Below, in pieces: positions 4,938 to 45,879 of a DNA stretch of 47,906 nucleotides. The notes below the pieces were generated by a model. That model saw only the letters and a program-made list of their open reading frames with translations, was not told where the DNA came from and ran no database searches. The stretch comes from a virus, in the IMG/VR virus record IMGVR_UViG_3300045282_000052, positions 1-47,906 of that record. One strand, 5' to 3'. The stretch's first letter is position 1; every line of letters begins with the position of its first letter. The translations under genes were made by a program, and so were the position numbers.

Positions 4938-5378
4938 ATGAAAAAAGCATGGTGGAAGAAATTCGAGCGCAACGAGGAGCGAGCCAAGAGCAATTGGCGC
5001 GAGTACGGGATACGGAATAAGGCATTAGCGGAACTTGGCTTTGCTAGTTATGCCGAATATCTTGCAAGTCCTCTTTGGCAGGAGATCAGGAAGAAGCGAT
5101 TGGAGATTTCGTCAGGCTGCTCGTGTTGCCTGAACCCGGCAGACGTTGTTCACCACGACAAATACTACAAGAGGCTGCTGATAGGTGACGACGCTTCGGT
5201 CAGGCGAGACTTATATCCCCTATGCCATCCATGCCATCGCCGCGTGGAGTTTGACGGGGACAGAAAGCGAAGTTCTGGCGAGGCTGTTCGTGAGTTTCGC
5301 CGAATGCTGTACAAGTTCAAGCACGGAAAATCGAAAGGCCAGATGATCCGCGAGAAGATCGCGGCTAGGCGTTCCTGA
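4938..5378 (+). CDS. HNH endonuclease
   Basis: 146 residues from ATG 4938 (AGGA upstream); a longer reading from 4743 would run through the structured non-coding stretch and lacks a start signal. The N-terminus is basic and helical. The nuclease core is CSCC, then VVHHDKYYKR, then LYPLCHPCHRRVEFDGD: two CxxC zinc pairs framing the HH and H residues of a beta-beta-alpha metal finger. No fused DNA-binding repeat is visible. Location directly after a 600-nt structured region is unusual and suggests the two may form one mobile unit. Confidence 0.85.
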   Translation: MKKAWWKKFERNEERAKSNWREYGIRNKALAELGFASYAEYLASPLWQEIRKKRLEISSGCSCCLNPADVVHHDKYYKRLLIGDDASVRRDLYPLCHPCHRRVEFDGDRKRSSGEAVREFRRMLYKFKHGKSKGQMIREKIAARRS

Positions 5379-7026: not shown

Positions 7027-7212
7027 ATGGAACATGACCAGTGGCTTTTGAGTGGCCCCGGTGGACCAGAGGACTCCAGCGATTGCGTTGGAACCTGCCC
7101 GACGTGCAAAGGCGAAGGCGAAGTTATCTGCCATCAAGACTTTGATTGCGGAACCATTAACATGATCTGCGATTGTCCCGAATGCAAAGGAACGGGGGTG
7201 ATTTGTGGTTAA
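7027..7212 (+). CDS. DnaJ-type zinc-finger small protein, 61 aa
   Basis: Carries CPTCKGEGEVIC and CPECKGTGVIC, two CxxCxGxG repeats of the DnaJ central zinc-finger type; no J domain is present. GGAG upstream. It overlaps the ERF gene by 8 bp, so the two are coupled. Small stand-alone DnaJ-like zinc proteins are common next to phage recombination genes; the role here is unknown. Confidence 0.75.
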   Translation: MEHDQWLLSGPGGPEDSSDCVGTCPTCKGEGEVICHQDFDCGTINMICDCPECKGTGVICG

Positions 7213-8098
7213 GCAACCTGAACTATTGACGCCAGTGAACGAGCAACTTGCCGAAGGTGAGATCGACACGGCATCGGGCAAATTCGATGATCCGGAGTTT
7301 TCGCCGAAGGGGGTCGTTAGCCGAAATACCGACAACCATTCCGCTATCGTCTCGGCTGATCCTGGGTCATGGATAACGTCTCTAGTCGGCCAAGGCGCTG
7401 ACCCGGCCAAACTGACGCAGCTTTACGACCTGTACGAGCGGTACAACCGGGATCAGGCGGTCAAGGCTTACAACGAGGCCATGCAGCGAGCGCAGGCCGA
7501 GATGCCGACCATCGTTTGTGACTGCACCAACCCGCAGACGCGGAGCAAGTATCCTTCGGTGGAAGCGATCAACCGGGGATGCAAGCCGATCTACACGCGG
7601 AACGGCTTCGCGCTCAGCTTCGGCGAGGGCAAGGCCGACGTTGAAGGTTTCGTGCGAACGACATGCACGGTGATGCATTCAGGCGGTCACTCGAAAGAGT
7701 TCTTCATCGACCTGCCTTCGGACGGGACCGGGATCAAAGGCAATAGCAACATGACCGCCATTCACGGTAGGCTGTCATCGAAGACCTACGCCCAATCGAA
7801 GCAGCTTCGGGAAATCTTCAACCTGACCGTGGCGGATGTCGGGGACGATACGGACGGAAACAAGCAGAACGAAGCTCTTGACGAGGACCAGATGGAGCGG
7901 CTGAATACGCTCCTCGAAGATACCGGGCATTTCGTTGACGAAGGCAAATTAAAGCGTTTCCTGAAGTGGTGCAACGACGCCTGCATTCGCTTGGGCCTCG
8001 GCAATGTCGAGAAGGTTTCCGACATCGGAACCGAGTTCTGGCAGACGGCGGTCAATGCCCTTGAGAATGACAAGAAAAAGAAAGCGGGTGCCAGGTGA
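7205..8098 (+). CDS. erf: ERF-family single-strand DNA annealing protein
   Basis: 297 residues from GTG 7205. The ERF core is clear: YDLYERYNRDQAVKAYNEAM, AQAEMPTIVCD, SKYPSVEAINRGCKPIY, GFALSFGEGKAD. ERF proteins form rings on ssDNA and anneal complementary strands in phage recombination and genome circularisation. The C-terminal third (residues 220-297) is acidic and helical, then lysine-rich. It is followed, with a GTGA overlap, by a YqaJ-type exonuclease, its expected functional partner (5'-end resection plus annealing). Confidence 0.9.
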   Translation: MVKQPELLTPVNEQLAEGEIDTASGKFDDPEFSPKGVVSRNTDNHSAIVSADPGSWITSLVGQGADPAKLTQLYDLYERYNRDQAVKAYNEAMQRAQAEMPTIVCDCTNPQTRSKYPSVEAINRGCKPIYTRNGFALSFGEGKADVEGFVRTTCTVMHSGGHSKEFFIDLPSDGTGIKGNSNMTAIHGRLSSKTYAQSKQLREIFNLTVADVGDDTDGNKQNEALDEDQMERLNTLLEDTGHFVDEGKLKRFLKWCNDACIRLGLGNVEKVSDIGTEFWQTAVNALENDKKKKAGAR

Positions 8099-8715
8099 TC
8101 CATCACGACGTAGAGCAATGCAGTAACGAATGGTGGGAGCTTCATCGTGGCCGCGCGACCGCCAGCAGTTTCGACAAGATCATCCAGCCAAAGAAGATGC
8201 TGTTGTCGGCCTCGGTCGATGACCTGATCGCGGAACTTATCGCGCAGAAGCTAACACCAATGTCGATGGTCCCGGAGGGTTTCATCAGCAAGCCGATGCT
8301 GAATGGCATAGCGATGGAACCGGAGGCAAGGTCGTGGTACGCAATGGAGCGAGGCATCGACGTTCAGCGCGTCGGCTTCTGCACCACGGACGACGGAAGA
8401 TTCGGCGCGTCTCCTGATGCTCTGTGCGATCAAGACGGCCTGATCGAGATCAAGTCTCCGCTGGCCAAGACGCACGTTCGCTACCTGATGGACGGGGAGT
8501 TGCCTTCGGAGTATCGCTGTCAGGTCCACGGAGAATTACTGGTGACTGGCCGGGCCTGGGCAGATTTCGTTTCGTATTGCCCGCCATTGCCGCCCTTCAT
8601 CGTGCGGGTTGTGCCGGATGACTTTACGAAGGCGCTCGCGGATTGCCTGGAGAAGTTCTGGACGAAGTACGAGGCCACGCTAAAGAAGATCACCGAAAGG
8701 AGCACTCATGCTTGA
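8095..8715 (+). CDS. YqaJ/lambda-exo type recombination exonuclease
   Basis: 206 residues from GTG 8095. The restriction-endonuclease fold signature is present: RGRATAS near residue 20, GIAMEPEA (Glu75/Glu77), FGASPDALCD (Asp108), LIEIKSP (Glu118-x-Lys120), and YRCQVHGEL (Gln143). These are the metal-binding and catalytic residues of the PD-(D/E)xK YqaJ family, which digests 5' strands of duplex DNA to load the annealing protein. Coupled to ERF by a 4-bp overlap. Confidence 0.92.
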   Translation: MIHHDVEQCSNEWWELHRGRATASSFDKIIQPKKMLLSASVDDLIAELIAQKLTPMSMVPEGFISKPMLNGIAMEPEARSWYAMERGIDVQRVGFCTTDDGRFGASPDALCDQDGLIEIKSPLAKTHVRYLMDGELPSEYRCQVHGELLVTGRAWADFVSYCPPLPPFIVRVVPDDFTKALADCLEKFWTKYEATLKKITERSTHA

Positions 8716-13312: not shown

Positions 13313-13954
13313 ATGTCTCCCAACGATCTTATCGGAAAAAAGTTCAACCGTCTAACAGTCATCAGGACGTGGACTGTCCCGAAGAGAAGGATATGCGAAG
13401 TCGTTTGCGATTGCGGCTCTGTCAAGTCCGTTCGTCTTGATGCTCTTACAAAGGGAACCACGAAATCTTGCGGCTGTCTTAACAAGGAAATGATTAGGCC
13501 GGGCAACGTCACTCATGGAAAATCGAAATTAAAAGCTTATGCCGTCTGGAATGGCATGATCCAGAGATGCACAAATAAAAACCTGAAGGGGTTTATGCTG
13601 TATGGAGGTCGAGGGATTTCCGTCTGCGAACGATGGAGGAAGTCATTTGCTGATTTCCTCTTCGACATGGGAGATAGGCCATCCAATCGGCACAGCATTG
13701 AAAGAATCGATAACAACGGCAACTACGAGCCTGGGAATTGTTGCTGGGCGACCGCCAAGGAGCAGAGCCTAAACCAAAGAAGAAGCCGGTTGATTGAGTT
13801 CAAGGGCGAGACTCTTAACTTGTGCGTCTGGGCGACGAGATACGGCATGAGCGACGGTCTTCTTTGGAGTCGTCTTAACGCAGGATGGAATATGGCTGAC
13901 GCATTGGAGATTCCGCCAAAGAAAGGACGCAATCAATATGAAAGTCGTCGATAA
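13313..13954 (+). CDS. HNH-type homing endonuclease with N-terminal zinc ribbon
   Basis: 213 residues after a CAAGGAG site. Residues 8-60 form a beta-ribbon (FNRLTVI..., VVCDCG, SCGCL). The catalytic part has YAVWNGMIQRCTN, YGGRGISVCERW, SIERIDNNGNYEPGNCCWAT, the typical HNH/AP2-associated phage homing nuclease pattern. A C-terminal helical module (residues 160-205) resembles a nuclease-associated DNA-binding segment. Overlaps the following HNH gene by 17 bp, which is odd for independent mobile genes. Confidence 0.88.
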   Translation: MSPNDLIGKKFNRLTVIRTWTVPKRRICEVVCDCGSVKSVRLDALTKGTTKSCGCLNKEMIRPGNVTHGKSKLKAYAVWNGMIQRCTNKNLKGFMLYGGRGISVCERWRKSFADFLFDMGDRPSNRHSIERIDNNGNYEPGNCCWATAKEQSLNQRRSRLIEFKGETLNLCVWATRYGMSDGLLWSRLNAGWNMADALEIPPKKGRNQYESRR

Positions 13955-16928: not shown

Positions 16929-17195
16929 ATGGACCCGCAAGTCGCCGCCAGGATCGCTTGCCACGATCAGAAGATTCAAGAGCAAATGGAATGCTTCAAA
17001 CGAACGTTTGACACGGACCCGCAAAAGGTCTACGAGGTCATGCGCCAAACGACCTTGTTTCTGAAAGACCAGGAAGCAATTGCGAATGCGACCAAATATG
17101 GCCCGGCGATGATGGCGACTTCGATGGCCGGGATAGGAATGTACCTTCTTTACGAGCATCTTGCCAGATGGGAAGACGAGGCCAAGGAAAGCTAA
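16929..17195 (+). CDS. hypothetical protein with one possible membrane segment, 88 aa
   Basis: Starts MDPQVAARIACHDQKIQEQ after GGAGGAAAAG. Residues 55-78 (AMMATSMAGIGMYLLYEHL region) form a hydrophobic stretch that could span a membrane, preceded by a charged helical N-terminus. It could be a small membrane protein or minor structural protein. It is the last + strand gene and ends tail-to-tail with the giant - strand gene, overlapping it by 4 bp. Confidence 0.65.
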   Translation: MDPQVAARIACHDQKIQEQMECFKRTFDTDPQKVYEVMRQTTLFLKDQEAIANATKYGPAMMATSMAGIGMYLLYEHLARWEDEAKES

Positions 17196-17205
17196 CGCGG
17201 CCTCG
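17177..17205. terminator. inverted repeat across convergent stop codons
   Basis: CGAGGCC (17177-17183) pairs with GGCCTCG (17199-17205) around a 15-nt loop that contains both convergent stop codons. It is symmetric, so it could slow transcription in both directions, though no T-run follows on either strand. Confidence 0.4.
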
Positions 17206-20200
17206 CCCGTCTCGGCTCATGAACCTGAATCGACATGCCAAGAAGACCCAGCAGACTAACCGCAGTCCCCTTCGGCATTCCAAGATCAACCATCGCTTCG
17301 TAAACGTCCCGCGCGAACAGCGGCGTAGTAACCTGCATCGCTGTCTGCGCGGGCGTTACTCTTTGGCCGACAACGTTCTGGCCGGTCAACTGGTCCAAAG
17401 CGGCTCCAGGGATGGGGGCCAGCTTGCCCCTCGCGAACCTTCCTACCACGCTCGCGGTATCATCTCGACCGAAAGCAACCGGCGCTCGCAAGGAACGAAC
17501 AACTCCGGTGTTCGTCTTGGTCGATTGGCTGAATACGCGGCTCAAAAAGGTTCCCGTGTTGGCAAGCCCGCCCGTGAAGTCAAGGCGAGTGTTGCCCATC
17601 TTCAGTTTGAGAAAGTCGGTCGCTCGCGGGTCTTTCTCGAAGGTGAACCCGGCAGCGGAGGCCAAGCCGACCACGACGCCAAGGCCAACGGCAAGACGGG
17701 CGTATTCCTTGGCAACTTCAAGGCGGGCACGCGGGGCTGAGGTTCCGATCTGGGTCCACAAGGGCTGGCCGAGGAGCAGTTGAAACCGGGAGATCGCCCA
17801 CTTGGGAGCGAAGAACGTATGGTTTAACAGCGTGGCGGCTGGCTCCATCTTGCCAAGCGGCCCTCGCCCGGTGGAGACATTGGCCCAATTCGCGATGATA
17901 CTGGCCTCCGCTGGCGTCAATTTTCCATTGGTCGATAAGGATTCCGCCATTCCCTTGAACGTGTCGAAGCGAATCCGGTTGAGGATGGTCTGATAAGCCC
18001 GCTCGGAAGCCCTCGTGATATGGCCGACCACGGGAACCTTGCCGATCACGTTGGAAAGAAATCCTTCCTCCCTGCCACTCGACTTTCCTTCCGTGCTGCT
18101 GGTTATCTCAAGGCCAGCCGGTTCCGCAACCTTGAACATCGGATCGTGCCGGATTTCATAGAGCGCCCGCTGGGCCACGTCTTCCGAGAAGAACGACCGG
18201 AACATCTCCGGGATCGCCTTTGAGGTTCGGACGGGGTGAGACAACATCCCGACCATGCCCTGCCGAAGAAGCGGGAAGTCAATCGAGGCCATCAGGGACT
18301 TCGGAATACTGACCGCTTCCCCGGCCATTCGCAGAGCCTTGACCGGCCACGGGGCACGGGCCTCCCGGTCCTTTTGCAACTGCGTCTTTATCTTGGTTTT
18401 GATCCTCGTCAACTCGAAGTCGATATCCGAAGGCTCGCCCGGCTTGACGGTGCCTGCCTTTTCTGCGGCGTCAAGTTTGTCCTGAAGCTCCTTGATCTTG
18501 GCGGATAGTTCAGCAATCTCGACCTTTTCAGCCTCGGTCAGCGGACGGCCTAGTGCGGCTTCCTTGCTCTTGAGCAAACCGCGAAGGGAGAAGTCTTCGG
18601 CAATCAGGAGCCGCCGCAATCGGAATGAGCGGCCCGCTTCGCTGCCAGACAGGGACGCGGCTTTATCGGCCTTGTCGAGTAGTTCAGACAACTCGCGTTC
18701 CCTAACATCGTGGCCGTTGATAGTGGCTTCGTCGGCCTTTTGAGCGAACGACCGCACAAAATCCAGCATGGCCCGCTCGTGTTCATTGCGCAGAGCCGTC
18801 ATGTGGTAATCGAGCAGCGCGTTCTCTTCTGCCGTTGCCGGACGAGGGTTCTTGTTCAATTCTTCCACGAGGCGACTTGCTGCCGTTGGGTCTTTTTCGA
18901 GGGCATCCATTGCCTTCTGCCAAACCTCCGGGTCCGAGCGAGCTTCTTGTGCGAGGATCGGTTCCTTGCCCATCTTGACTCGCTCGGCATCGACGTGTTC
19001 GTAGGCCAAGGCTGTCAGTCGCCCTGGTCGTCCTGCTCCGGAGGCGTCTGGTTGTCCGCCGCTGGGGAGGATTCTCCGCTCGGCTGCTGTGACGGGTCGG
19101 CCAAATCCAGATTCGGCGGGTGATTTCGGCATCATTTCTTCGCGAATATATTTGGCTAGGTCGGCTCTACCATTCTGCTCTGCCTCCTTTGCAATATTTT
19201 CAAGTTGGCTCTTTGGGGAAGAGTCGAATATCCATTGGATGTTAAAGGTTTCGGCTTTCTTCCAGTCTTCCGCCGACATTACTCCTGATCGCTCTCCTCC
19301 GGAAGTGTCTGGTTGTCTTCCGTTGGCGGCATCTCGGCCTGCTGGTTCTCCTGTTCTTGGGGGAGCGGCGGCGGGCGCATTCCCTGCTGTCCTGGACTCA
19401 GCGGACGGAGCGGCTTCAGCGCCTTGAGGGGCTTCAGCATCCCGACCGACTTCAGGAGCCGCAACCTCTGAATGAGCTTCCCTTTCAACTTCACTTTTAA
19501 CGCCTGCAACGTCTTCGCGTACTTTGGCGGGCGCAAGCCCGGAAGACCGCGCGGCAGCGAGAGCTTCAGCTTCGGCATTGGCTATCTCCTCTGGAGTTAC
19601 TCGCGCCAAGTATTCAATCGCTTCTTGCGGAGAATGCCCGGCATCCTTGAATACTTTCATTATTTCGACAAGCGTCTGCTGTTCGGACTCTTGGCTCTGT
19701 GGACGCTTGGCCCTCTCCTCGAAAATACGGTCGAGGGCCAAGTCCAGTTCCTTGCCGTACTTATTGGCGATGAATTGCTCGCCTAGTACCCGCCCGCTGG
19801 CTGCGTTGCTGGTTTGCTTAGGTATAACGACATGATGGAAAACCGCATCGTCAGACATCGGATGGGGCGTATGCGAATCAGCCATCTTCTCTCTTATCGT
19901 CTCCCACGACCAACCTTTCTCGCCAGGGGATTGCTTCGCTCCGGCAGCTAAATCTTGCCGACTGCCTTCAAGATGGCCGCTCTGAATCATTTTGCCGACT
20001 TGTTTCTTGAACTCGGTAAGTGTCACATCTCCTTGGAGCCTGTCCTTGACCGCATCATAAAGATCACTGATAAAAACCTTGTGAACTGTTGGGCCAGTAA
20101 AAGGCTCATTCCCGAAATGATCGATGATGTTTTGGCCTGCTTCGTGAATGAGTCTAGCAAAAGCCTGAGCGTCATGCAGTGACACTTTCTCTGTTAATAT

Positions 20201-23200
20201 CCTCCTGCCGGTTGCGTTGCTGCTGGCTGAGGCAGGTGCATTGGCCCCGACGTTGGCTTCGTTGCCGGGCCGATTAACTTCGGGCTGCCCGGTGGGCGCT
20301 TGCCCGGCTGAGGCTGGAGGGCTTCCTTGGTCCGGAGCAACAGGCCCAGCCCCTTGCCCTGCGTTTGGTGCGGCTTCACCTTGAACGGCTGACGGCCCCG
20401 CAGCCTCGCTAGGACGCTGGAGATCGGTTCCACCGATATTTGCTTGACCTTCTTCGGGTCCAACTTTAGTAATGCCGCGAAGTTCGCCACGCGCCCTTTC
20501 CCCACGAGCTTCTCGTTCGGACTTATGAGCTTTAAGCCCTGCTTCTGCTTGTCTAACATCGGTGCCAACTCCAAAAGAGAAATCTGCTCCTATTAAATGG
20601 GAAACGCTCCCATCCTTTTCTTCGACGACGATTATCGTCTCGCGGAGAATCTGCCTTGCCGTTTCAAGTTGCTGTCTAAGAACTTGCGGATCGCCGCCCC
20701 GGTGCAGGAACTCGTCTCCCTTTTCGTGGTAGGCATCCACGCCCGCCGCCTTCAGCGCCTCGGCCTTGGCGTTCAACAGGGCATCGCCAGCCGCATAACC
20801 GAAGCGGTCATTGAAAGCTTTCAGTCCGTCCGCATCCGAGAAGCCGACGACGGGAGATTTCGGAGCCTCATCGAAGGCCCGCTTGTTCGGAAGATCGACC
20901 GTCTGCGAGGTCAGCAGTTCCTTGCGGGCTTCCTCATGCGTCATGTCGGCAACGCGGCGGCGCTCGCCTTGACGCCTTTCGACCGGAACTTCAACGGTTT
21001 GCTGGCGGCGTTCGGCTGATCTTTGCCCCATCGTTGCGACCAGTTCGACGGGAGGCAATCCAAACTCGGCCCGCTTCGTGTTCAGCGCGTCAACCGTTTC
21101 TTTTAACTTGGCGAAGTCCGGGGCCGACCCTTCACCCTTATACCGAACCTGCTTCAGAGCCGGGTCCATCTTCGGAGCGTTCTTGTTGTAGACTTTGGCA
21201 ATGCCTTCTCGTTCCTGAATAGTTCCGCCCGATTTCTCGATAGCGTTGCGGTCAAAGACGAGTGTTGCCGTTCCCTTCTCCGCGTTCGCATTCGACCTTT
21301 CGTGAGCCGGACCTAACTTCGATCCAGCCGTATCCGCCCACGTATCGATTGGCCGCATGGTGCCGCCTTCGAGGACTCGCTGGGCATCCCGAACAGACTC
21401 CTTCGGAGACTTGTAACTCAGCGTGTGGAACAACAGATTTTCAGGGGCTTGCGAACTTCGGCGACTTCGGTGCAGCCTTTCAGCAAGAGTCTGATGCGAT
21501 TCCATCGCAGCCGTCAACTCTGTTGCTGCCCGTTGCCTGCGATCTTTGGCAATTTGGGTGTCACCGCCCTCTGATTGTGCCGCACTATGCTCTTTTTGGG
21601 CAGCGTCAACTCTCTCGCGGGAAGCTGTCAATTCTGCGGATCGAGAAGCATCCATTCGCGGGTAGGAGGATTGTGAACTCTGCCCGCTCCCTTGCGCAGC
21701 CGCACCTTCCGCAGCAGCCTCGGTACGAAGTCGGTCTACCTCCGGAAGCGCCTGCTTATACGCTTTGTCCAACTCTCTGACTTTTGCCTTGGCCTCCGCA
21801 ATCTCTTTCGGGTTAGGGTTCACAAACTCCCTGGAAAGTCGCCGAAGATTAGCCTTTGCCTCGTCGAGTTGCCGATAAATCAGCCTTGATTGATTTTCTG
21901 CGGCATCTGATCGCTCCCTGGCCGTCATTGGTGGCTTAGCAGTCTGCCCAGGAACCCCCTGATTTGCCCCCGTCCCGGCATTCGGAGCGGTTTCGGCGGG
22001 ACTTCGGTTGCCTTGCGAGTTCCTGCCTTCCTGCTGCATCCTGGCCTGCTCATTGGCCAATCCAGTGTTGGCCTGATCGGGAGTCATTGGCGAATCGACC
22101 CGCGTGGCGGTTTCTGGGAGAGCGTCGGCTTGCGTTGCGGCAAATCTCCGGAGCAGAGGGTCAACTGCCGGGTTCTCGGAATACTGCTTCATGACCTCCC
22201 TGGCTTGCGATCTCGTCATGTTCGGGTTCTTGGCAAGGGCGTCTGCCATTGTTTTTTGGACGGCCTGAATTGCCTCGGCTGTGACCGACCTCGGCAAGCC
22301 GTTTTCGGACTGCTGGCGGGTATAGTCAAGGAAAGCGTCTGCATGTGCGCGGCCATTTTGACCCTCGTGCAAGGCTCCGAATGCTGAAAAGGTAAGAGCG
22401 GTAATCGCGGCCTGCTGGAACGCATTCTCCCTGCCGCCCGGTTTATCCCAATCGCGAACCAGTTGACCAATGGAACCGTACCCCGTCTCCCGACTGCGTA
22501 AGCCTACCAGCGTAGAGGCAACGTCGGCTGCTTGCTGCTCGGCAAATCCAATCGGGCCAGCGGCCCCGATCCGAGTTGCCATCGCTCGCATTCCGGTTCC
22601 GCGAGCAAGTCCGCTGGTCTGGCCGCCAAGCGATCCAAGAATAGCGACGTTGACCATTCCAAGGGCAAAGGCCGAAGGAAGACCTTCGATGTCCATTGGG
22701 TCGCGTCCAGCTTGGACATTATTCTGGGTCCATTCCGGTGCCCACATACCCGGCATCATGGCGGTAGTCGCGCCAACCCGGACTCCGGCTCGTCCCGCTT
22801 CGCCCGCCATGACAAGCGGAGAAGCAGCGCCTCGTCCGGATGCCCCGGCCAAATCTCCCAACTCGCCGCCAAGACCAATAGCCCTTGCACCGCGACCGAT
22901 AACTCCGGGGGCCTCGGCAGCAGCGCCAATCGCCCTACCAGCCAACCCAGCTTCCCCGGCCATCGCCGCCACGCGCAGGCCGAAATGACCAACTTCCTCG
23001 GCAACTCCTCGCTGGCCTTCGAGTTCGCGCGAACGCTCGACTTGAGCAACGATGTCATAGTCGCCAGATTCGGCCCGGTGTTCGGCAATCCTGGCGGCTG
23101 CTCGCTGGTACTGGACTTCGATTCTCGTGTTGTGGTAATTGCTGGCCAAAGGCATCGCCTGAATTGCCGTGTGGACGGCGGGAGGGGACCAATCTCGGTG

Positions 23201-23407
23201 CCGCTCGCGGGCGATACGAAGTTCTCTCGCAGTTTCCCATCGCTTTTGAAGGTCTGCCTGATCGAGATCGGGATAAGCCGTCTGGAAGTCGTTGGCAACT
23301 GCGGACCACGGGGCAGGCGCAGGAACTTCGTCACGGGCCGGGACATCGCTCGACTCGCCGCTAAAAGCAATTCCACCGAAGAGGGTATCGAGAGGGCCAT
23401 CAGCCAT
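17192..23407 (-). CDS. giant polyvalent ejection-type protein with GGDEF-like domain
   Basis: 2071 residues. Residues 130-300 are Gly/Ala-rich and hydrophobic, as in membrane-interacting ejection proteins. Residues 490-650 are coiled coil. Residues 835-965 match a GGDEF (diguanylate cyclase) fold: DLPNKRAF, then FSDADGLKAFNDRFG and AGDALL, the signature loop KGDEF (896-900; 20708-20722), then SFGVG and a final Ala/Lys helix. The first Gly of GGDEF is Lys, and no RxxD inhibitory site is seen. Residues 1000-1370 are linkers and helical modules; 1690-2065 match the large-polyvalent-protein C-terminal region (LPD38-like: GMVGMLSHPVRTSKAIPE, ANWANVSTGRG, NHTFFAPKW). Last gene of the late operon. 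It is probably packaged and ejected, then acts in the host; enzyme activity is unproven. Confidence 0.8.
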   Translation of the reverse strand: MADGPLDTLFGGIAFSGESSDVPARDEVPAPAPWSAVANDFQTAYPDLDQADLQKRWETARELRIARERHRDWSPPAVHTAIQAMPLASNYHNTRIEVQYQRAAARIAEHRAESGDYDIVAQVERSRELEGQRGVAEEVGHFGLRVAAMAGEAGLAGRAIGAAAEAPGVIGRGARAIGLGGELGDLAGASGRGAASPLVMAGEAGRAGVRVGATTAMMPGMWAPEWTQNNVQAGRDPMDIEGLPSAFALGMVNVAILGSLGGQTSGLARGTGMRAMATRIGAAGPIGFAEQQAADVASTLVGLRSRETGYGSIGQLVRDWDKPGGRENAFQQAAITALTFSAFGALHEGQNGRAHADAFLDYTRQQSENGLPRSVTAEAIQAVQKTMADALAKNPNMTRSQAREVMKQYSENPAVDPLLRRFAATQADALPETATRVDSPMTPDQANTGLANEQARMQQEGRNSQGNRSPAETAPNAGTGANQGVPGQTAKPPMTARERSDAAENQSRLIYRQLDEAKANLRRLSREFVNPNPKEIAEAKAKVRELDKAYKQALPEVDRLRTEAAAEGAAAQGSGQSSQSSYPRMDASRSAELTASRERVDAAQKEHSAAQSEGGDTQIAKDRRQRAATELTAAMESHQTLAERLHRSRRSSQAPENLLFHTLSYKSPKESVRDAQRVLEGGTMRPIDTWADTAGSKLGPAHERSNANAEKGTATLVFDRNAIEKSGGTIQEREGIAKVYNKNAPKMDPALKQVRYKGEGSAPDFAKLKETVDALNTKRAEFGLPPVELVATMGQRSAERRQQTVEVPVERRQGERRRVADMTHEEARKELLTSQTVDLPNKRAFDEAPKSPVVGFSDADGLKAFNDRFGYAAGDALLNAKAEALKAAGVDAYHEKGDEFLHRGGDPQVLRQQLETARQILRETIIVVEEKDGSVSHLIGADFSFGVGTDVRQAEAGLKAHKSEREARGERARGELRGITKVGPEEGQANIGGTDLQRPSEAAGPSAVQGEAAPNAGQGAGPVAPDQGSPPASAGQAPTGQPEVNRPGNEANVGANAPASASSNATGRRILTEKVSLHDAQAFARLIHEAGQNIIDHFGNEPFTGPTVHKVFISDLYDAVKDRLQGDVTLTEFKKQVGKMIQSGHLEGSRQDLAAGAKQSPGEKGWSWETIREKMADSHTPHPMSDDAVFHHVVIPKQTSNAASGRVLGEQFIANKYGKELDLALDRIFEERAKRPQSQESEQQTLVEIMKVFKDAGHSPQEAIEYLARVTPEEIANAEAEALAAARSSGLAPAKVREDVAGVKSEVEREAHSEVAAPEVGRDAEAPQGAEAAPSAESRTAGNAPAAAPPRTGEPAGRDAANGRQPDTSGGERSGVMSAEDWKKAETFNIQWIFDSSPKSQLENIAKEAEQNGRADLAKYIREEMMPKSPAESGFGRPVTAAERRILPSGGQPDASGAGRPGRLTALAYEHVDAERVKMGKEPILAQEARSDPEVWQKAMDALEKDPTAASRLVEELNKNPRPATAEENALLDYHMTALRNEHERAMLDFVRSFAQKADEATINGHDVRERELSELLDKADKAASLSGSEAGRSFRLRRLLIAEDFSLRGLLKSKEAALGRPLTEAEKVEIAELSAKIKELQDKLDAAEKAGTVKPGEPSDIDFELTRIKTKIKTQLQKDREARAPWPVKALRMAGEAVSIPKSLMASIDFPLLRQGMVGMLSHPVRTSKAIPEMFRSFFSEDVAQRALYEIRHDPMFKVAEPAGLEITSSTEGKSSGREEGFLSNVIGKVPVVGHITRASERAYQTILNRIRFDTFKGMAESLSTNGKLTPAEASIIANWANVSTGRGPLGKMEPAATLLNHTFFAPKWAISRFQLLLGQPLWTQIGTSAPRARLEVAKEYARLAVGLGVVVGLASAAGFTFEKDPRATDFLKLKMGNTRLDFTGGLANTGTFLSRVFSQSTKTNTGVVRSLRAPVAFGRDDTASVVGRFARGKLAPIPGAALDQLTGQNVVGQRVTPAQTAMQVTTPLFARDVYEAMVDLGMPKGTAVSLLGLLGMSIQVHEPRRARPR

Positions 23408-28472: not shown

Positions 28473-30107
28473 TTATGCTCCTCGTCTGCGAACTTTGCCT
28501 TGCCCCGCTATTCTAATGCGGATTTGCTCCAGCGCCCAAGGGGAACTTGACGATACCTTGATGTAGGTCGCGTGCGCTGTCTTCCGAATGAAGTTCGACA
28601 TATTCCTCCCCGGTCCCCACGTCCCGGAGAAAACAGGCGTAGACGCAAGGGCAACCTCTGCTGTACTCCCCTGAAATACCTCGAATGTTACCGTCGTTGC
28701 CGTGTTCATGGAAAGGATGGCCTGTATGTCCTTGAGCAGAACATCGTCCATGTCCGCCGTCAAGAACGGCCCGATTAAGACCGAACTGTCAATGGCAACT
28801 CCATCATCCGTGGTCGCTTCGGGAGATATTGCCCGCACATATCCGTCCCACGAGCCAATGAGCGGGGTTCGGTCGTTCGCATCGTTGCCATCAAAGGCCA
28901 CGCAGCAAAGCGGATCGTGGTTGTGATCGGCAAACCGATCCTGCCACCACGCCCCCGCGCGTGCCTCGTAGAAGAAGTGCGTCGTCGCCCCCGGCTCCAC
29001 GAGCGGAGTAATGAAGACGTGGCAGCCCTGGAACCGATCATCCCAGAGCATCCGGATAGCGTTCTGGCCGGTGTCGATCTGCTGCAAAATCTGCTCGATC
29101 TGCTGGCTGATTCGCTGCGGGGCTTGACCGGGAACCAGCGTGTAGATGCCGCAGCGGTTCGAGTAGAAGTACAGCGTGCCGAATGGGTCTTTTGTCCACG
29201 GCATCCCGAACGCCATGCCGATAGCGTCAGAGATAAGGTCGATCTGGCCCCCGGCCATCGGGTCTCCACGCATCATGTAAATCGTGTGGTCCCCGCCGAA
29301 GATCATCACATCGTCCGAGTACGGCACCAGCGAAGTCACTACGTCACCGATGAGGCCCAAGGGCGAGTTGTTGCCTGCAATGGCCTGATCGGGCGAGGTC
29401 GAGAGAGGCGAGTAATCATAATCCGTTGGCACCGCGACTCTGGACATGAACCAGTTTTGTGGATCGAGCAGCAGTCCGGACAATACCGTGCGGCCTCGCC
29501 AAGTGCAAATGAGCCGTGGAGTATTGCCGTCCGAATCGACCGGGAGAACGCCCGCCGTCGCGACCCACGGCAAGAGGACATTCGTATGCGGATCGTAATA
29601 GACCCAATTCGTGCCATCGGCAAACCAGAGCTTCTGATTGTTCGCCGCCGAAAACATGATTCCCGTGAAACTCAACGGCGGGTCTTCTCCCGTGCTATTC
29701 GTGGGAGATGACCATGCGGTATCACCTGGATTTGCGATCCGAACCTGACCTTGACTGACCGCCACGAGGGTCACAACCCGCCCGCTCTGTGAAGTTTGCA
29801 CGGCCCCTCCTCCGGGCGGACTGTAGCCGCTCCCGACCAACGTATAAAGTTCCTGCACCACGAAGTATTCGCCGTTTACCTGCACGGGAAGATGCTTCAC
29901 GAGTCCAGCCCGTGACCCGCCTCGCGAGCGATTCGATGTCGGTTCGTAGGTCCGGACATTGAGGCCGAGCGGCGTTGTCCTCGCATAGTCGCTCTTGCCC
30001 GGCCCCACGTTGCGGTTCGGCTGCTTCCCGAATGGGCAGGCCACGTCCATACCCGCTTTCGGGAAGTGAAGGTCTTTCAGGAGTTCATCGGCCTTTATCT
30101 GGTCCAT
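28473..30107 (-). CDS. tail tubular protein B-like/distal tail protein, 544 aa
   Basis: Read from ATG 30107, two bases after the upstream stop; a longer reading from a TTG at 30158 overlaps the upstream gene. The long strand-rich sequence with repeated IFGGDHTIYMMRG-, GIYTLVPGQ- and IGSWDGYV-type blades fits the large tail tubular (gp12/P22 gp10-like) proteins that form the short-tail nozzle. Its first 70 residues resemble those of the upstream protein (FPxxGxDV, QPxxN, NVRxYEPxxNRxRGxxRxGLVK), so the two share an attachment module. Confidence 0.7.
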   Translation of the reverse strand: MDQIKADELLKDLHFPKAGMDVACPFGKQPNRNVGPGKSDYARTTPLGLNVRTYEPTSNRSRGGSRAGLVKHLPVQVNGEYFVVQELYTLVGSGYSPPGGGAVQTSQSGRVVTLVAVSQGQVRIANPGDTAWSSPTNSTGEDPPLSFTGIMFSAANNQKLWFADGTNWVYYDPHTNVLLPWVATAGVLPVDSDGNTPRLICTWRGRTVLSGLLLDPQNWFMSRVAVPTDYDYSPLSTSPDQAIAGNNSPLGLIGDVVTSLVPYSDDVMIFGGDHTIYMMRGDPMAGGQIDLISDAIGMAFGMPWTKDPFGTLYFYSNRCGIYTLVPGQAPQRISQQIEQILQQIDTGQNAIRMLWDDRFQGCHVFITPLVEPGATTHFFYEARAGAWWQDRFADHNHDPLCCVAFDGNDANDRTPLIGSWDGYVRAISPEATTDDGVAIDSSVLIGPFLTADMDDVLLKDIQAILSMNTATTVTFEVFQGSTAEVALASTPVFSGTWGPGRNMSNFIRKTAHATYIKVSSSSPWALEQIRIRIAGQGKVRRRGA

Positions 30108-30108
30108 G

Positions 30109-31212
30109 TTAAACCGTGTTGAAGGAACCGCTTCCGCCTGTTGTATTTCCCCCGCCAAGGGCCAAGGTGTTCGTGAGGCTACGAGCGCGAAGCAAGCTTG
30201 CGTCCAAGGTCATTGCATCAACTTGGTATACCCCAGCATCCAAGATAACCCCAACCGAATTGACTCCATCGTCCGTCCACGTCACCTTAATTGCAATGAC
30301 GTGCGGCCCCGCTGCTGGTCTAGCGATAGGAGTATCGCCATCAAAGACGCCGCCGCCAGCGATCACATCCGGAACCGGGGAAAAGGTCAGCGGATACACT
30401 CCTCCGGTCAGTCTTGTTTCGTAATGCCAGAAGGCCGCATTGAAACTTGGGGTTCTGGTGGGCGAAAGCGATATAATCGAAACTCCGTCGAGCAACAATT
30501 CCGCCGTTGCCGCTCCCCCGGCAGAATTAAGGACCATCGCACTCAACATGAAAATGTATTCGATGGTCACAGGCGGATCGGAGACTGTCATTGACCCTAA
30601 TTGATAGATGATCTGATACTTGTTAAGGCCACTCCCAACGGCATTGCTGATGCTGATGTCATAGGCTCCCGCCGTTGCGCCTGATGGAGCGCCCGCACTC
30701 GTTATTGTCGCGCTGCTAACGGAATCTCCACCGATCAGACCCGTAGCCGTGAACTCGGTTCCAAGAAAGACGAACGTGTCGCCTGTGGTTTTAGTCTGAT
30801 CGTCTGCCCGGATTGTCAAAGCGGCCTTCGGCCTCTTCCGGTTCGGCTGCCTCCCGCTCCCCCCTCGCCTCAGCCGACGCCTTCCTCCCGGATTCCTGAC
30901 GCTCAAGTTGTTCGTCGAAGGGTCCGAAATCTCTCCCTCGGCATCGTCCGAGATCAAAGCGTCCGTGGTTGGGTCCACGATGATGTTCAAGTGCTGAATC
31001 TTCGATAGGCCGTTTACTCGGTCGTCGATGTATTTAACCAAGCCAGACCGAGCGGCCCCGCGTTGCCGGTTTGTGGACGGCTCGAACCCGCGCACGTTCA
31101 CCGCGTCCGGGGTCGTTTCGGCTGGCTGGGATTCAAGCTCAATGGAAACGTCAAGACCACGTTCGGGAAAGGTCAATTCTTCCAGGGATTCGCGTGGCTG
31201 AACGGGTTTCAT
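30109..31212 (-). CDS. tail protein sharing N-terminus with the nozzle protein, 367 aa
   Basis: Residues 10-75 (LEELTFPERGLDVS, VRGFEPSTNRQRGAARSGLVKY) parallel the first 75 residues of the downstream nozzle-type protein. The remainder is different: a Thr/Gly-rich beta region with VTIEYIFMLSAMVL and PHVIAIKVTWTDDG, like an appendage domain. It may be a truncated or refitted paralogue carrying an appendage on the same docking site. Starts with ATGA overlap with the upstream gene. Confidence 0.6.
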   Translation of the reverse strand: MKPVQPRESLEELTFPERGLDVSIELESQPAETTPDAVNVRGFEPSTNRQRGAARSGLVKYIDDRVNGLSKIQHLNIIVDPTTDALISDDAEGEISDPSTNNLSVRNPGGRRRLRRGGSGRQPNRKRPKAALTIRADDQTKTTGDTFVFLGTEFTATGLIGGDSVSSATITSAGAPSGATAGAYDISISNAVGSGLNKYQIIYQLGSMTVSDPPVTIEYIFMLSAMVLNSAGGAATAELLLDGVSIISLSPTRTPSFNAAFWHYETRLTGGVYPLTFSPVPDVIAGGGVFDGDTPIARPAAGPHVIAIKVTWTDDGVNSVGVILDAGVYQVDAMTLDASLLRARSLTNTLALGGGNTTGGSGSFNTV

Positions 31213-41094: not shown

Positions 41095-41427
41095 TTAGTC
41101 GCCGTAGGAACCGTTATTATCGTGGAACCCCAGCGATCTCATTATATCCCGTCTCTGCCCCCTGTCCTTGAGAATCATCCTTCCATCCTTCGGATCGTAT
41201 TCGCTGGCGATCCCCCGCTTGCGGTCCCGCTCCATCATTTCCGGTATCTGTTCCGGATGACAAGCGAGCGCGTCGGACTTCATCGGCCAACAAGCCGGGT
41301 TCTGTGCCTGCATCGGCACTCCCAGCGGCTTTTTCGGGAATGTGGTATCGAACTCGGCCTTCGTGACTTCGATGCCGTCGATGAAGTAAGTCTCGCCGCG
41401 CGATCCATAAACGACTTTGCCTTTCAT
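41095..41427 (-). CDS. hypothetical protein, 110 aa
   Basis: Starts MKGKVVYGSRGETYFIDGIEVT, overlaps the portal stop by 4 bp. Contains VTKAEFDTTFPKKP and CWPMKSDALACHPEQI, the pattern of a short conserved phage protein (often described as having an AFDxxxP-type segment) with unknown role. Follows portal in the packaging segment. Confidence 0.7.
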   Translation of the reverse strand: MKGKVVYGSRGETYFIDGIEVTKAEFDTTFPKKPLGVPMQAQNPACWPMKSDALACHPEQIPEMMERDRKRGIASEYDPKDGRMILKDRGQRRDIMRSLGFHDNNGSYGD

Positions 41428-43244
41428 TGCACCATCCCTTGAGGAGTTCCGTTCATTTGACCATTCGTGGGCTTGGCCGATCTCATGTTCGAGGCGAGAG
41501 CTTCTTTGGCTTGCTGGCTGTCTCCGCCGACCGAACGCCGCGTGATCTCGGTTTTCTTCTGCGCGGGAGCGCCCATCTGGTCGGACGGACCTTGCGAGCT
41601 TTGCTGTTCGGGAGGCTCCCGCATGGTGATGATCTCTTCCAGGTCCGGCATGTCCATGTACTTCGCGATTTTCTTTAGGAAGGCGTTCATGTCGAACGCC
41701 ACGCCCTGCGCCTGGAGAGTTTGAAGCTGAGGAATAACAACCGTCGTCACTACCTGATTCAACATCGCCAGCCGCATCTGGGGCGTCTGATGCTGCATCG
41801 AGTACGGGTCGATCTTGATGTCGATGTCGTCCCAACTCGCCTGCGCCCTTTGCTGCGGAGTCACTTGCCTCACAATCGAGAACTGCGGAAGTCCCGGCAA
41901 GGCAAACTTGGACTTCATCGTTTTGGTCGGATGATGATGATGGAACCAGATCGCCGCCCGAAGAATGTCCGCCGTGTAACTTATCGTGATGTCCTGCATA
42001 TCAGTGACGCCACGCGAGCTATTCGCGTTGAGCATCGTATCCTGCGTGGCCGTCTTCGATTGCGGGCCAAGGCCAGCCAGAATATCCAAGTTCCCGGCCA
42101 GTTTATTGAAGTGCCCGCCAAGCTGCTCCATCAACTGACCGATCATCTGGTCGGGTTGGTCCGTCACGATATGCTTCAGGCTCTCCGGGTTGTCGATGCG
42201 AACCACGTCGCCATCATTGCACTCGATCAACCGCTTGCCGTCCGCGTCGGCTCCCCCGGCAACAAAGGTAACGTGCTTCGAGCGGCGGGCCTGCTCGATC
42301 ACCTTGCGGCAAATATTGTTGATCGCCAAATGAAGATCGTACAAGTCCTGCATCGGCCCCTTCGGACACCAGTTGCCCGGTATCATCTTGTAGCCGAGAA
42401 TGTGATAGGGTCCGCAGTCGGGGCCGATCCACCTTTGCACCTTGAGCGCGCGAGCGCCATACTCGCCCGCCTTCTTGTCCTCGGCACCGGCAATGTAATC
42501 GTCGGCCAAAGTGACGATGACCTTGTGACGAGGAAGGTAGATTTCCCACAGGTCGATGAAGTCCTCGTACTCCTCAGTATCGGCGTAGTACCCTCTCCCC
42601 ATGACCGAGATACGTTCGTCGCCTTCGAGGTTGAACAACTTATCGTCCGTGGCCTCCAACTGCTTGCGACCTTTGCCGTACTCCTTCGACTGGCGGACCA
42701 CTTCGAGGGGAACCCGGAAGCGATGCCCAACAAAGCCGAAGTTGCGTTTGTCCCGTGCGTGAACATCGCAAACGAAATCGTCCGGGTCTACCGGCTCGAT
42801 CATCACGTCGCCAGCGCCAATGCTCCATGCCGTATTCGCCGAATCCGCAGGAGTCGCAAGGGCCACCTTGCAGACGCCGAACGAATAGAACGCATCCCGG
42901 ACAACCCGCTGAATCGTATTGGCAAGGTTGATGTCTTCGATGTATTTGTTGGCCCAGGTTTCCTCGGCAGAGATGATCGGTTTGGACGACTTATCGAACG
43001 TCGAAAGCATCACGCGAGGATTCTTCGGGACAAGAAGGCTGCCGTAAACTTGGTCGTAAAGCGAGAGGAGGTTGATCGGTTGAGACTGCTGAGGAACCGT
43101 GTCGGCCCCCCAATAAGGACCGGCACAGGCTCTCACCATGTCAGTGCGAATTTCCCGCTGCCGACGCATGACGAGGCGGGAACGCTGCATCGCAACGCAC
43201 AAGCGGCCTAAATCAAGGTCTTTCTCTTTGTTCTGCCGTGCCAA
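41424..43244 (-). CDS. portal protein
   Basis: 606 residues from TTG 43244 (the only in-frame start before an upstream stop; the next ATG would be at residue 19). Features of podovirus portals: N-terminal helical region, LVPKNPRVMLSTFDKSS, DIDIKIDPYSMQHQT, and a C-terminal helical barrel plus Gln-rich tail. Position directly after terminase supports this. It forms the dodecameric ring through which DNA enters and leaves. Confidence 0.8.
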   Translation of the reverse strand: MARQNKEKDLDLGRLCVAMQRSRLVMRRQREIRTDMVRACAGPYWGADTVPQQSQPINLLSLYDQVYGSLLVPKNPRVMLSTFDKSSKPIISAEETWANKYIEDINLANTIQRVVRDAFYSFGVCKVALATPADSANTAWSIGAGDVMIEPVDPDDFVCDVHARDKRNFGFVGHRFRVPLEVVRQSKEYGKGRKQLEATDDKLFNLEGDERISVMGRGYYADTEEYEDFIDLWEIYLPRHKVIVTLADDYIAGAEDKKAGEYGARALKVQRWIGPDCGPYHILGYKMIPGNWCPKGPMQDLYDLHLAINNICRKVIEQARRSKHVTFVAGGADADGKRLIECNDGDVVRIDNPESLKHIVTDQPDQMIGQLMEQLGGHFNKLAGNLDILAGLGPQSKTATQDTMLNANSSRGVTDMQDITISYTADILRAAIWFHHHHPTKTMKSKFALPGLPQFSIVRQVTPQQRAQASWDDIDIKIDPYSMQHQTPQMRLAMLNQVVTTVVIPQLQTLQAQGVAFDMNAFLKKIAKYMDMPDLEEIITMREPPEQQSSQGPSDQMGAPAQKKTEITRRSVGGDSQQAKEALASNMRSAKPTNGQMNGTPQGMVQ

Positions 43245-43459: not shown

Positions 43460-45316
43460 TCACCACGCCTCTTGCTTGCGCCGGTTCTCGTGCTGCTCGC
43501 GCCGCCACGCCAGCGACAAAACCTGCACTTCTTCGGCGATCCGCTTCTCTTCGAGTATAACCCCGCCCTTCGCCATTGTCCACGCAATAGCGTCCGCCAT
43601 CGTCCGATCCCCGTGATTCACCCGCGCGCCCGAAGGGTCGTTGCCGCCCTCGATATTCTGATGTTCGATCTTCCCTCCCTGACCATACCGAAAGAAAAGG
43701 CATTCCTTCAAGGCGTACTTGCACGGGTTCAAAAAGCTGTGCTTGTATAAAGCCTCCTTATAATGCGAGAGAAGAAGCCGAAGGCGTTCCCCGCCGTCGT
43801 TCATCCAGCCGGGCCGGTCGGACTTCTTGAATTTGACGTTGCCCTCGTCGGCCATGTAGTAGAGTCTGCGATAGCCAAGTTCCAAAACCCGCGAGCCGAA
43901 TTTGATTCCGGGGCCGGGAATTTCCCAACCCAGCATTGCCCCATCATCGATCTCGTTTTTGAATAGCCAGCACAGAGCAACCATCTTCGCCGCCGCGTCT
44001 TCTTCCTTGATGAACGGGTCCACGTAAGCGCCGACCTTGTTCCCGGTCCTGCCGTCCAGAATAGAGAAGCAGGTCGGGGTGGCTCCCGTGCCCGTGGCAA
44101 TGTCCCCGGCGATCAGATAGAAACTTGGCGGAGGGCAGCCCTTGGCGTCCGGGTATATCCACAAATGCAACCGGCCATCACTCTTCCTTGTCAGGCGGAT
44201 AGGTTTGCCGGTGTTCGGGTCGAATTCCACGTCGCCCTTCCAGACCGGCTCGCGTGCGAACTCACGCTCCAACTTGGAAAGTAAGAGTTGATCGAAGAAC
44301 TGCTTGGACGCCCCCATGCGGTCGATGTCAAGGTCCATCGCAATCGCGCGGGAGTCTTTGCGGACCCGGCACTCGTTGTCGTACCACGGACTTCTTAGCT
44401 TTCCGTCCATGACGAAGTTGAAGTCGGTGCCGTGGAAGAAGAACGGCTGAACGGTTTCAACGTCTCCCGTCTCCGGGTTGTAACGCTTATGTTCGACCTT
44501 CTTCTTCGTGTCGTTGTACTGGTAAAGACCAGCGTTCTTGGAAGGGTGCATCGACCAGTGAAGGCGCAGCTTGGCCACGTCTACCCGTTCGGCCAACTCA
44601 CCTGCGCAGTCACCGTCATCTCTGTGAGTAAAGTTAAAGATGCGGCAAAGGGATGTGTCGCGGGTATGTCGAAGAAGCCCATACGCAGTTTTACGATCCA
44701 TCGCGGAGAACTCGTCAAGGAACGCCCCAGTTGCACGTCCGCCTGTACCGGAGACTTTCGTGCTGGCTTCGCCCGTGATCGTCGAGTCGGTTTTCGGGTA
44801 GCCAAAGTACATATCCTTTCGGTCGCAATGAGGAGCCAGCCAGTCCGGAAGATACTTGTGGATGAAGTCGATCTTCCAGAAAAGCGAGTTAGGAGAAAAA
44901 GAGTCCACCGCCTCTGCCGAACGTGAGATCATCAAGAACTGCTTATTGGGGTGAAATTGGCATATCCAGTCCATCACCATCAGGCACATCCACGAAGCGC
45001 CCATCTCGCGGGACTTCTCGATCACCAAGTCTTCGCGGTTCTCTATCGCCCAGAGGATTTTCTGGAAAGCGCCCGTGCGCGGGTTGTCTTGAAAGTTCCA
45101 GGTGATGAACGGTTCAACCTCATGGCCTTCTCGGAGGGGGTTGAACTGGAAGACGAACGTGTTGATGTAGAAGATGATGTCGCGACGGCAGGCTTCGATC
45201 ATTGCCCACTGAGCGTCCTTGTCCTCGCGGCAACGCTTGAGAACCCACTTCCGCCAGTCCATGTTTTCGAGCGGGTCTTTCGGGACTTGCAGATGGTCTT
45301 TACCGGGAGACAGCAT
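43460..45316 (-). CDS. terminase large subunit
   Basis: 618 residues from ATG 45316 (AAGGAAG upstream; GTG 45319 is the alternative). ATPase: variant Walker A EKSREMGASW (about residues 100-109) and Walker B AFLDEFS (198-204). Nuclease: AGDIATGTGATP carries the first metal-binding Asp, and the final NHGDRTMADAIAWTM carries the last. It pumps DNA through the portal and cuts concatemers. The Lys-to-Ser variation in the P-loop is common in terminases, which place the catalytic Lys/Arg differently. Confidence 0.9.
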   Translation of the reverse strand: MLSPGKDHLQVPKDPLENMDWRKWVLKRCREDKDAQWAMIEACRRDIIFYINTFVFQFNPLREGHEVEPFITWNFQDNPRTGAFQKILWAIENREDLVIEKSREMGASWMCLMVMDWICQFHPNKQFLMISRSAEAVDSFSPNSLFWKIDFIHKYLPDWLAPHCDRKDMYFGYPKTDSTITGEASTKVSGTGGRATGAFLDEFSAMDRKTAYGLLRHTRDTSLCRIFNFTHRDDGDCAGELAERVDVAKLRLHWSMHPSKNAGLYQYNDTKKKVEHKRYNPETGDVETVQPFFFHGTDFNFVMDGKLRSPWYDNECRVRKDSRAIAMDLDIDRMGASKQFFDQLLLSKLEREFAREPVWKGDVEFDPNTGKPIRLTRKSDGRLHLWIYPDAKGCPPPSFYLIAGDIATGTGATPTCFSILDGRTGNKVGAYVDPFIKEEDAAAKMVALCWLFKNEIDDGAMLGWEIPGPGIKFGSRVLELGYRRLYYMADEGNVKFKKSDRPGWMNDGGERLRLLLSHYKEALYKHSFLNPCKYALKECLFFRYGQGGKIEHQNIEGGNDPSGARVNHGDRTMADAIAWTMAKGGVILEEKRIAEEVQVLSLAWRREQHENRRKQEAW

Positions 45317-45879
45317 CACGCTTCCTTTCCCGGCGTGCCTTCTTCAGTGCCCTCGCCAACAACAGCCTCGCCCGCTCCACTCTCGATAGTTCCCGCAAAA
45401 CGTCCATCAGCCGGGTTTCTTTTAGCGGACGCTTTAAGTGCCGCTTTCTTTTCATTTGCATCTTTGTATTCCTTGATGAGCCGGTCCAGCAGTTCAACCG
45501 CTGTATCCGACCCCTTATCGATCACCGGAGCCTCCGCAAACTCCTTGAACGCCTCAAGCTCCAGATGCCGCTCCTTTATCTCCGCATCCTGAATGTGTTC
45601 CTCCATCCTTGCATAGTCCTTCATGAACTCCTTGGGTGAATCCTCCATCATCTTCCGGTAGGCCCGCTGCAAAGGATGCTTGTCTTCTTCTTTATTCTTC
45701 TTCAAGACGTGACGCATCGCCACCAGAAGGGGAAACTTGAGTTGCTTGCCAAGACGCCGACGCTTCCTCGCCCAGAGCTTGTGACATACCCGGCAACACT
45801 TTGATCCGTTCGGTCGGATATGCAAGTTCTCCGGAGTAAGAGGGTGGCCCTTGATACAGTGGGTTTTCAGTTTGGCCAT
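45316..45879 (-). CDS. putative small terminase with N-terminal zinc module
   Basis: 187 residues. Residues 6-40 form a zinc module (CIKGHP...RPNGSKCCRVCHKLW) that also forms the C-terminus of the HNH nuclease at 1833. The rest is helical: MMEDSPKEFMKDYARMEEHI and VELLDRLIKEYK, the pattern of small terminases that bind packaging sites. It precedes the large terminase with a 1-3 bp overlap. The unusual zinc head may supply the DNA-binding part. Confidence 0.7.
   Translation of the reverse strand: MAKLKTHCIKGHPLTPENLHIRPNGSKCCRVCHKLWARKRRRLGKQLKFPLLVAMRHVLKKNKEEDKHPLQRAYRKMMEDSPKEFMKDYARMEEHIQDAEIKERHLELEAFKEFAEAPVIDKGSDTAVELLDRLIKEYKDANEKKAALKASAKRNPADGRFAGTIESGAGEAVVGEGTEEGTPGKEA

What the first reader, a model, noticed from the sequence alone, without database searches (positions are those of the whole stretch)
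20500..20930. GGDEF-family (cyclic-dinucleotide synthase-like) domain inside a giant ejection-type phage protein
Seen: residues about 835-965 of the 2071-residue protein read DLPNKRAF, DADGLKAFND, AGDALL, KGDEF, SFGVG and a closing Ala/Lys helix, in the order and spacing of a GGDEF domain. Known: GGDEF enzymes make c-di-GMP; the signature loop holds the catalytic Asp/Glu, and the first Gly tolerates change. Here the loop is KGDEF and no RxxD inhibitory site is seen. Inferred: the protein is probably packaged and ejected, given LPD38-like C-terminus and the last-gene position, so the phage may deliver a nucleotide-signalling or decoy enzyme at the moment of infection. That would be a novel way to change host signalling or blunt cyclic-nucleotide defences (for example CBASS).
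Basis: partly seen in the sequence, partly recalled or inferred. Interest (0 to 1): 0.85.

Follow-up and report, generated by a model that had tools for sequence, protein, structure and literature searches.

The report
GGDEF domain in giant phage protein
A phage carries, in the middle of a giant protein that is probably injected into the host, a signal-nucleotide-making (GGDEF) domain from a virus-specific branch of that enzyme family; the general idea was published in 2017, but the branch's conserved active site, missing feedback site and cut-and-paste spread make it worth a direct enzyme test.

Summary
Residues ~815-976 of the 2071-aa minus-strand protein form a GGDEF domain: a profile of the family hits only GGDEF/diguanylate-cyclase structures in the PDB (best E 7e-14), and the AlphaFold model (pLDDT 89.8) matches them in a fold search. 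It belongs to a discrete viral clade: 35 relatives score 134-229 bits against at most 67 for cellular GGDEFs, and tree support is 100/95. Most of these domains sit inside unrelated giant phage proteins of 650-4052 aa, several with classic polyvalent-protein domains. Catalytic and guanine-recognition residues are essentially invariant. The RxxD feedback site is absent from all. The first Gly is usually Ser or Lys, and the Arg before the motif is His. Sister phages have the same giant protein at the same place without the domain, so it is a swappable cargo. Best reading: a constitutive, guanine-specific nucleotidyl cyclase delivered with the virion. Delivery and activity are inferred; Lys at the first position inactivated the one diguanylate cyclase in which it was tested. 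LPD38 was not found. Iyer et al. 2017 already reported GGDEF domains in polyvalent proteins and proposed interference with host nucleotide signalling, so the concept is not new. The CBASS link is untested.

The parts
17192..23407 (-). Giant protein gene (P0001, 2071 aa), last gene of the minus-strand late cluster
   Evidence: syntenic homologues of 1744-2268 aa in sister phages
20480..20965 (-). GGDEF domain, residues ~815-976
   Evidence: Pfam, PDB profile (37, 55), AF2 and fold search (49, 56); only region shared with the giant proteins
20819..20836 (-). DADGLK, residues 858-863: metal-binding Asp858 (PleD D327), Asp860, Lys863 (K332)
   Evidence: alignment to DGC structures; all invariant in 35 viral relatives
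20783..20815 (-). FNDRFGYAAGD, residues 865-875: Asn866 (N335) and Asp875 (D344), guanine recognition
   Evidence: N in 35/35 and D in 31/35 relatives
20708..20722 (-). KGDEF signature loop, residues 896-900, at a predicted beta-hairpin turn; His894 two residues before it replaces the usual Arg
20510..20527 (-). HKSERE, residues 961-966: Lys962, phosphate-contact Lys (K442 equivalent)
   Evidence: K in 33 of 33 relatives with a residue there; aligned to SiaD 7e6g
21968..23320 (-). Conserved N-terminal part, residues ~30-480, present in sister phages
20993..21370 (-). Small module just upstream of the GGDEF, residues ~680-805; part (711-789) also in a sister giant that lacks the GGDEF
   Evidence: E 7e-6, about 28% identity
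17195..19108 (-). Conserved C-terminal part, residues ~1434-2071; no LPD38 detected
   Evidence: related C-terminus in MW202497 giant protein; LPD38 tests
41427..43244 (-). Portal / head-tail adaptor protein, same strand
   Evidence: phrog_332 E 1.4e-10
43463..45319 (-). Terminase large subunit, same strand
   Evidence: phrog_2 E 3e-8; tblastn to phage TerL

Best explanation
The window protein is a giant late (probably internal-virion/ejected) phage protein whose middle section carries a swappable GGDEF enzyme. Shown: GGDEF fold; retained metal-binding, guanine-recognition and phosphate-contact residues; no product-inhibition site; membership of a viral GGDEF clade that moves between unrelated giant proteins; absence from the otherwise homologous giant proteins of sister phages. 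Inferred: the protein enters the cell with the DNA, two copies pair (GGDEF catalysis needs a dimer), and the domain condenses GTP into c-di-GMP or a closely related guanine dinucleotide without feedback control, giving a pulse of signal at the start of infection that changes host state or interferes with nucleotide-based defence.
For: Family profile hits only DGC/GGDEF structures; fold search likewise; AF2 pLDDT 89.8. In 35 viral relatives 7 of 8 known functional positions are invariant, among only 11 invariant columns of 168 (hypergeometric P 4e-9). No RxxD site in 36 viral domains against 15 of 18 cellular. Score gap 134 or more against 67 or less bits and one clade at 100/95. The GGDEF is the only part shared between P0001 and the giant proteins found. 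Relatives carry LPD38, LPD5, LPD1, LPD22, ART-PolyVal, ddrB-ParB, PBECR5, RadC, 2H and RelA/SpoT domains. Structural neighbours: TerL and portal in the window; internal virion protein in the same strand cluster as L021's giant and tail proteins near those of L018 and L028. Sister giants lack the GGDEF (82, 83, 85).
Against: Lys at the first motif position was among the substitutions that lost activity in V. cholerae VCA0965 (PMC3974145), and no paper held mentions KGDEF. The conserved Arg before the motif is His here. No packaging data. No second enzymatic domain was recognised in P0001 by Pfam. Dimerisation inside a 2071-aa protein is unproven.
Confidence: 0.5

Rival explanations
1. A guanine nucleotidyltransferase with an altered product: the Ser/Lys in place of the first Gly and His in place of Arg stop normal cyclisation, so it makes linear pppGpG or another guanine (di)nucleotide, used as a decoy signal or as a primer.
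For: Both substitutions are near-fixed in the viral clade (first Gly kept in 3/35, Arg in 5/35; cellular 18/18 each) while the catalytic Asp/Glu/Lys/Asn stay invariant. c-di-GMP lies over the first Gly in DGCs (PMC3974145).
Against: Ser at that position occurs in an active DGC (ECA3270, cited in PMC3974145). No product data. The D344 equivalent is Asn in 4/35.
Confidence: 0.2
2. A catalytically dead GGDEF used as a sponge or decoy that binds GTP or cyclic dinucleotides and so lowers host signals.
For: KGDEF-type change inactivated VCA0965; degenerate GGDEFs can act as binding modules (PMC3974145).
Against: Strict invariance of catalytic residues in 35 relatives; the product-binding RxxD site, through which degenerate GGDEFs are known to bind c-di-GMP (general knowledge), is absent from all 36.
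Confidence: 0.15
3. An active cyclase that is not injected: the protein acts in the infected or lysogenic cell after expression.
For: Solo members exist outside structural clusters, for example the Yuavirus 156-aa gene upstream of the terminase genes, after DNA-replication genes. Bordetella LK3 lysogens, whose phage has such a gene, form more biofilm (PMC8471281).
Against: In the window and in several relatives the carrier is a giant protein at the end of, or beside, structural genes. The clade was seen in 1 of 274 same-class bacterial genomes, so lysogeny seems rare.
Confidence: 0.15

Closest known systems
GGDEF domains in phage polyvalent proteins (Iyer et al. 2017, PMC5512222)
   Same: GGDEF embedded in a giant phage protein, thought to be injected and to interfere with host nucleotide signalling
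   Different: That paper calls such GGDEFs 'not very widespread' and, in the passages read, gives no clade, I-site or active-site analysis; LPD or other polyvalent domains were not found in the window protein itself
Solo GGDEF proteins of Yuavirus and Bordetella Vojvodinavirus phages (e.g. Churro UNA02230.1)
   Same: Same viral GGDEF clade (Bordetella phage CN1 protein is the second viral fold match)
   Different: Stand-alone, ~156 aa, SGDEF, not part of a giant protein
Cellular diguanylate cyclases (PleD, WspR, SiaD, TpbB)
   Same: Fold and catalytic residues
   Different: The viral clade lacks the RxxD I-site, has Ser/Lys for the first Gly, His for Arg, and shorter segments before DxD and before the hairpin
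mCpol / OptS of Panoptes and Cas10 palm
   Same: Related palm fold; cyclic nucleotide synthesis in phage-host conflict (PMC12657218)
   Different: The window domain keeps the GDEF motif and matches DGCs, not Cas10/mCpol, in sequence and fold searches

Membership tests
GGDEF domain (PF00990) | Sequence profile match | tested here: met
   6e-5 for the domain, just under the curated cut-off; 26/26 family members match; PDB profile 7e-14
GGDEF domain (PF00990) | GGDEF fold | tested here: met
   AF2 pLDDT 89.8; DGC structures are the top Foldseek hits
Active diguanylate cyclase | Metal Asp, catalytic Asp/Glu-Glu, Lys, guanine Asn/Asp | tested here: met
   D858, K863, N866, D875, D898, E899, K962; conservation
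Active diguanylate cyclase | (G/S/A)G(D/E)EF motif | tested here: not met
   KGDEF; Lys inactive in VCA0965; K fixed in the window's sub-clade except GGDEF in L010
Active diguanylate cyclase | c-di-GMP synthesis, dimerisation | not testable with these tools
   needs enzyme assay
I-site-regulated DGC | RxxD upstream of GGDEF | tested here: not met
   0/36 viral domains, 15/18 cellular
Hypr (cGAMP-making) GGDEF | Ser at the D344 position | tested here: not met
   Asp875 in the window; D 31, N 4 in relatives; the Hypr rule itself is from general knowledge
Phage polyvalent protein (Iyer 2017) | Several disparate enzymatic or LPD domains in one polypeptide | tested here: inconclusive
   only GGDEF recognised in P0001; relatives meet it clearly
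Phage polyvalent protein (Iyer 2017) | Gene among late/virion genes | tested here: met
   last gene of the strand cluster with TerL and portal
Phage polyvalent protein (Iyer 2017) | Packaged and injected | not testable with these tools
   needs virion proteomics
LPD38 | Pfam PF18857 / profile match at the C-terminus | tested here: not met
   no hit at E<1; hhalign probability near 0 (shallow profiles)

The most novel reading that the evidence does not exclude
A virus-specific branch of GGDEF enzymes, injected as interchangeable cargo of giant virion proteins, makes a guanine dinucleotide other than ordinary c-di-GMP (for example linear pppGpG or a decoy signal) at infection onset to blunt or mimic host defence signals; at least one relative pairs it with RelA/SpoT and 2H phosphoesterase domains as a nucleotide-signalling kit (L007).
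Probability: 0.15. Interest if true: 0.85.

Novelty: new variant of a known kind. Interest (0 to 1): 0.52.

Why it matters
Phage counter-measures to nucleotide-based immunity known so far mostly degrade or sponge signals; a virion-delivered synthase would be the opposite strategy. The clade gives a sharp, cheap test: express one small domain, identify its product by mass spectrometry, and look for it in virions. Its modular spread also shows that giant ejected proteins act as cargo carriers with a swappable middle.

Tried and rejected
LPD38 at the C-terminus: not found by Pfam or by profile-profile comparison. Close relatives of the whole giant protein in IMG/VR by P0001 itself or by its C-terminus: none; they were found through the neighbouring 561-aa gene. 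The Hypr/cGAMP type was rejected by the Asp at the D344 position. Cas10/mCpol was rejected because DGCs are the only strong matches. Other enzymatic domains in P0001 were sought with Pfam, PHROGs and PDB: none. Pfam on the sister giants gave only weak, non-meaningful hits, so what fills the slot there is unknown. Residue-level distances in the AF2 model could not be read; secondary structure and fold match were used instead.

Full report
The observation. The 2071-aa ORF lies on the minus strand, 17192-23407. The isolated domain scores 23.3 bits against Pfam GGDEF (cut-off 23.8), so a single-sequence search leaves some doubt. The doubt disappears with relatives: a profile of 26 members hits only GGDEF/diguanylate-cyclase chains in the PDB, 48 of them at E below 0.001, and each member matches PF00990. 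AlphaFold2 gives pLDDT 89.8 and pTM 0.82, with beta strands at residues 92-97 and 100-105 of the construct, flanking the G-D of KGDEF as in the canonical hairpin, and the first Asp (D59 of the construct) at the end of a strand. Top PDB fold matches are diguanylate cyclases; TM-scores are moderate (about 0.5-0.6), as expected of a shortened, divergent domain. The best viral fold matches are a large unnamed phage protein (40% identity) and the Bordetella phage CN1 GGDEF protein.

A viral clade. Two scans of IMG/VR found 30 and 37 loci, largely overlapping; in most, the domain sits in an ORF of 650-4052 aa, while Yuavirus types and L042/L047 are small stand-alone proteins. Searching all fetched loci with the profile gives two separate groups: 134 bits or more for the viral type and 67 or less for cellular-type GGDEFs, some of which are also on viral contigs. 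In the tree the 35 viral-type rows form one side of a branch with 100/95 support; cellular sampling was small (17 rows). In MAGs with up to 33 GGDEF matches the only high-scoring copy stands alone on one contig, and 1 of 274 genomes of that class had one (at most 13 candidates per genome were scored).

Active-site pattern. Among 35 viral relatives (window excluded) the equivalents of PleD D327, K332, N335, G369, D/E370, E371 and K442 are invariant; D344 is D in 31 and N in 4. The first Gly is S in 23, K in 7, G in 3, T 1, H 1 (cellular: G in 18/18), and the Arg two residues before the motif is H in 30 and R in 5 (cellular: R 18/18). RxxD is absent from all viral domains and present in 15 of 18 cellular ones (the pattern search saw only part of the two Yuavirus-type rows, whose full sequences also lack it). 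The K442 column rests on the alignment to SiaD, since local matches of cellular rows mostly stop before it. PleD residue numbers and roles are from general knowledge of that enzyme. Lys is fixed in the window's sub-clade apart from L010 (GGDEF), across giant and solo proteins, so it is not random decay; yet Lys was inactive in VCA0965, where only A, G, H and M worked, and the authors note that tolerance depends on the enzyme (PMC3974145).

A cargo module. P0001 shares nothing but the GGDEF with the giant proteins of the other carriers. The neighbouring 561-aa gene led to sister phages at 47-66% identity with related gene order. Their giant proteins (1744-2268 aa) match P0001 at residues ~30-480 and/or ~1434-1690, and none of the six sister records has a GGDEF at E up to 10 (the tool warns that virus records may be fragments, but the giant ORFs of five of them were fetched and compared). 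One sister shares residues 711-789 shortly before the GGDEF. So the domain is an insertion or replacement in a conserved carrier. In another pair, L007 and L011, proteins of ~3690 aa are 97% identical except mainly for the second half of the GGDEF domain, about 50% identical, which suggests exchange within the domain itself.

Delivery. Evidence is contextual: the gene closes a same-strand cluster with terminase and portal; its C-terminus resembles a giant protein two genes downstream of a 'phage stabilization protein' in MW202497; relatives lie in clusters with an internal virion protein (L021) or tail proteins (L018, L028); and several relatives are textbook polyvalent proteins. None of this shows packaging.

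Prior knowledge. Iyer et al. 2017 already report GGDEF domains in polyvalent proteins, including a giant Acetonema prophage protein, and propose both interference with host nucleotide responses and action against rival elements. Yuavirus and Bordetella phages have annotated solo GGDEF proteins, and biofilm changes in LK3 lysogens have been linked to one without proof (PMC8471281). What is added here is the clade, its consistent active-site and I-site changes, and the carrier-with-swappable-cargo evidence. Nothing found bears on CBASS.

Noticed in passing
L007:5112-16160: 3682-aa phage protein with RelA/SpoT, 2H phosphoesterase and GGDEF domains in a row: three nucleotide-signalling activities in one polypeptide.
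   Followed up: partly
L007 and L011 giant ORFs, residues ~1055-1145: Two ~3690-aa proteins 97% identical overall differ strongly (about 50%) only in the second half of the GGDEF domain, as if that half had been exchanged.
   Followed up: partly
window 28473-31212: Adjacent genes 28473-30158 and 30109-31212 appear to share an N-terminal segment of ~80 residues (both hit the same places in sister phages), possibly a tandem pair of virion-anchored fibre or spike proteins.
   Followed up: no
L042 and L047 (39.6 kb and 187 kb contigs): Stand-alone KGDEF proteins (193 and 352 aa) in near-identical neighbourhoods, in the same sub-clade as the window's domain.
   Followed up: no
window 4743-5378, 13313-13954, 45316-45882: Three HNH-endonuclease-like genes, plus an Erf-like annealing protein (7205-8098) and a RecE-like exonuclease (8095-8715) that may support domain shuffling.
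   Followed up: no
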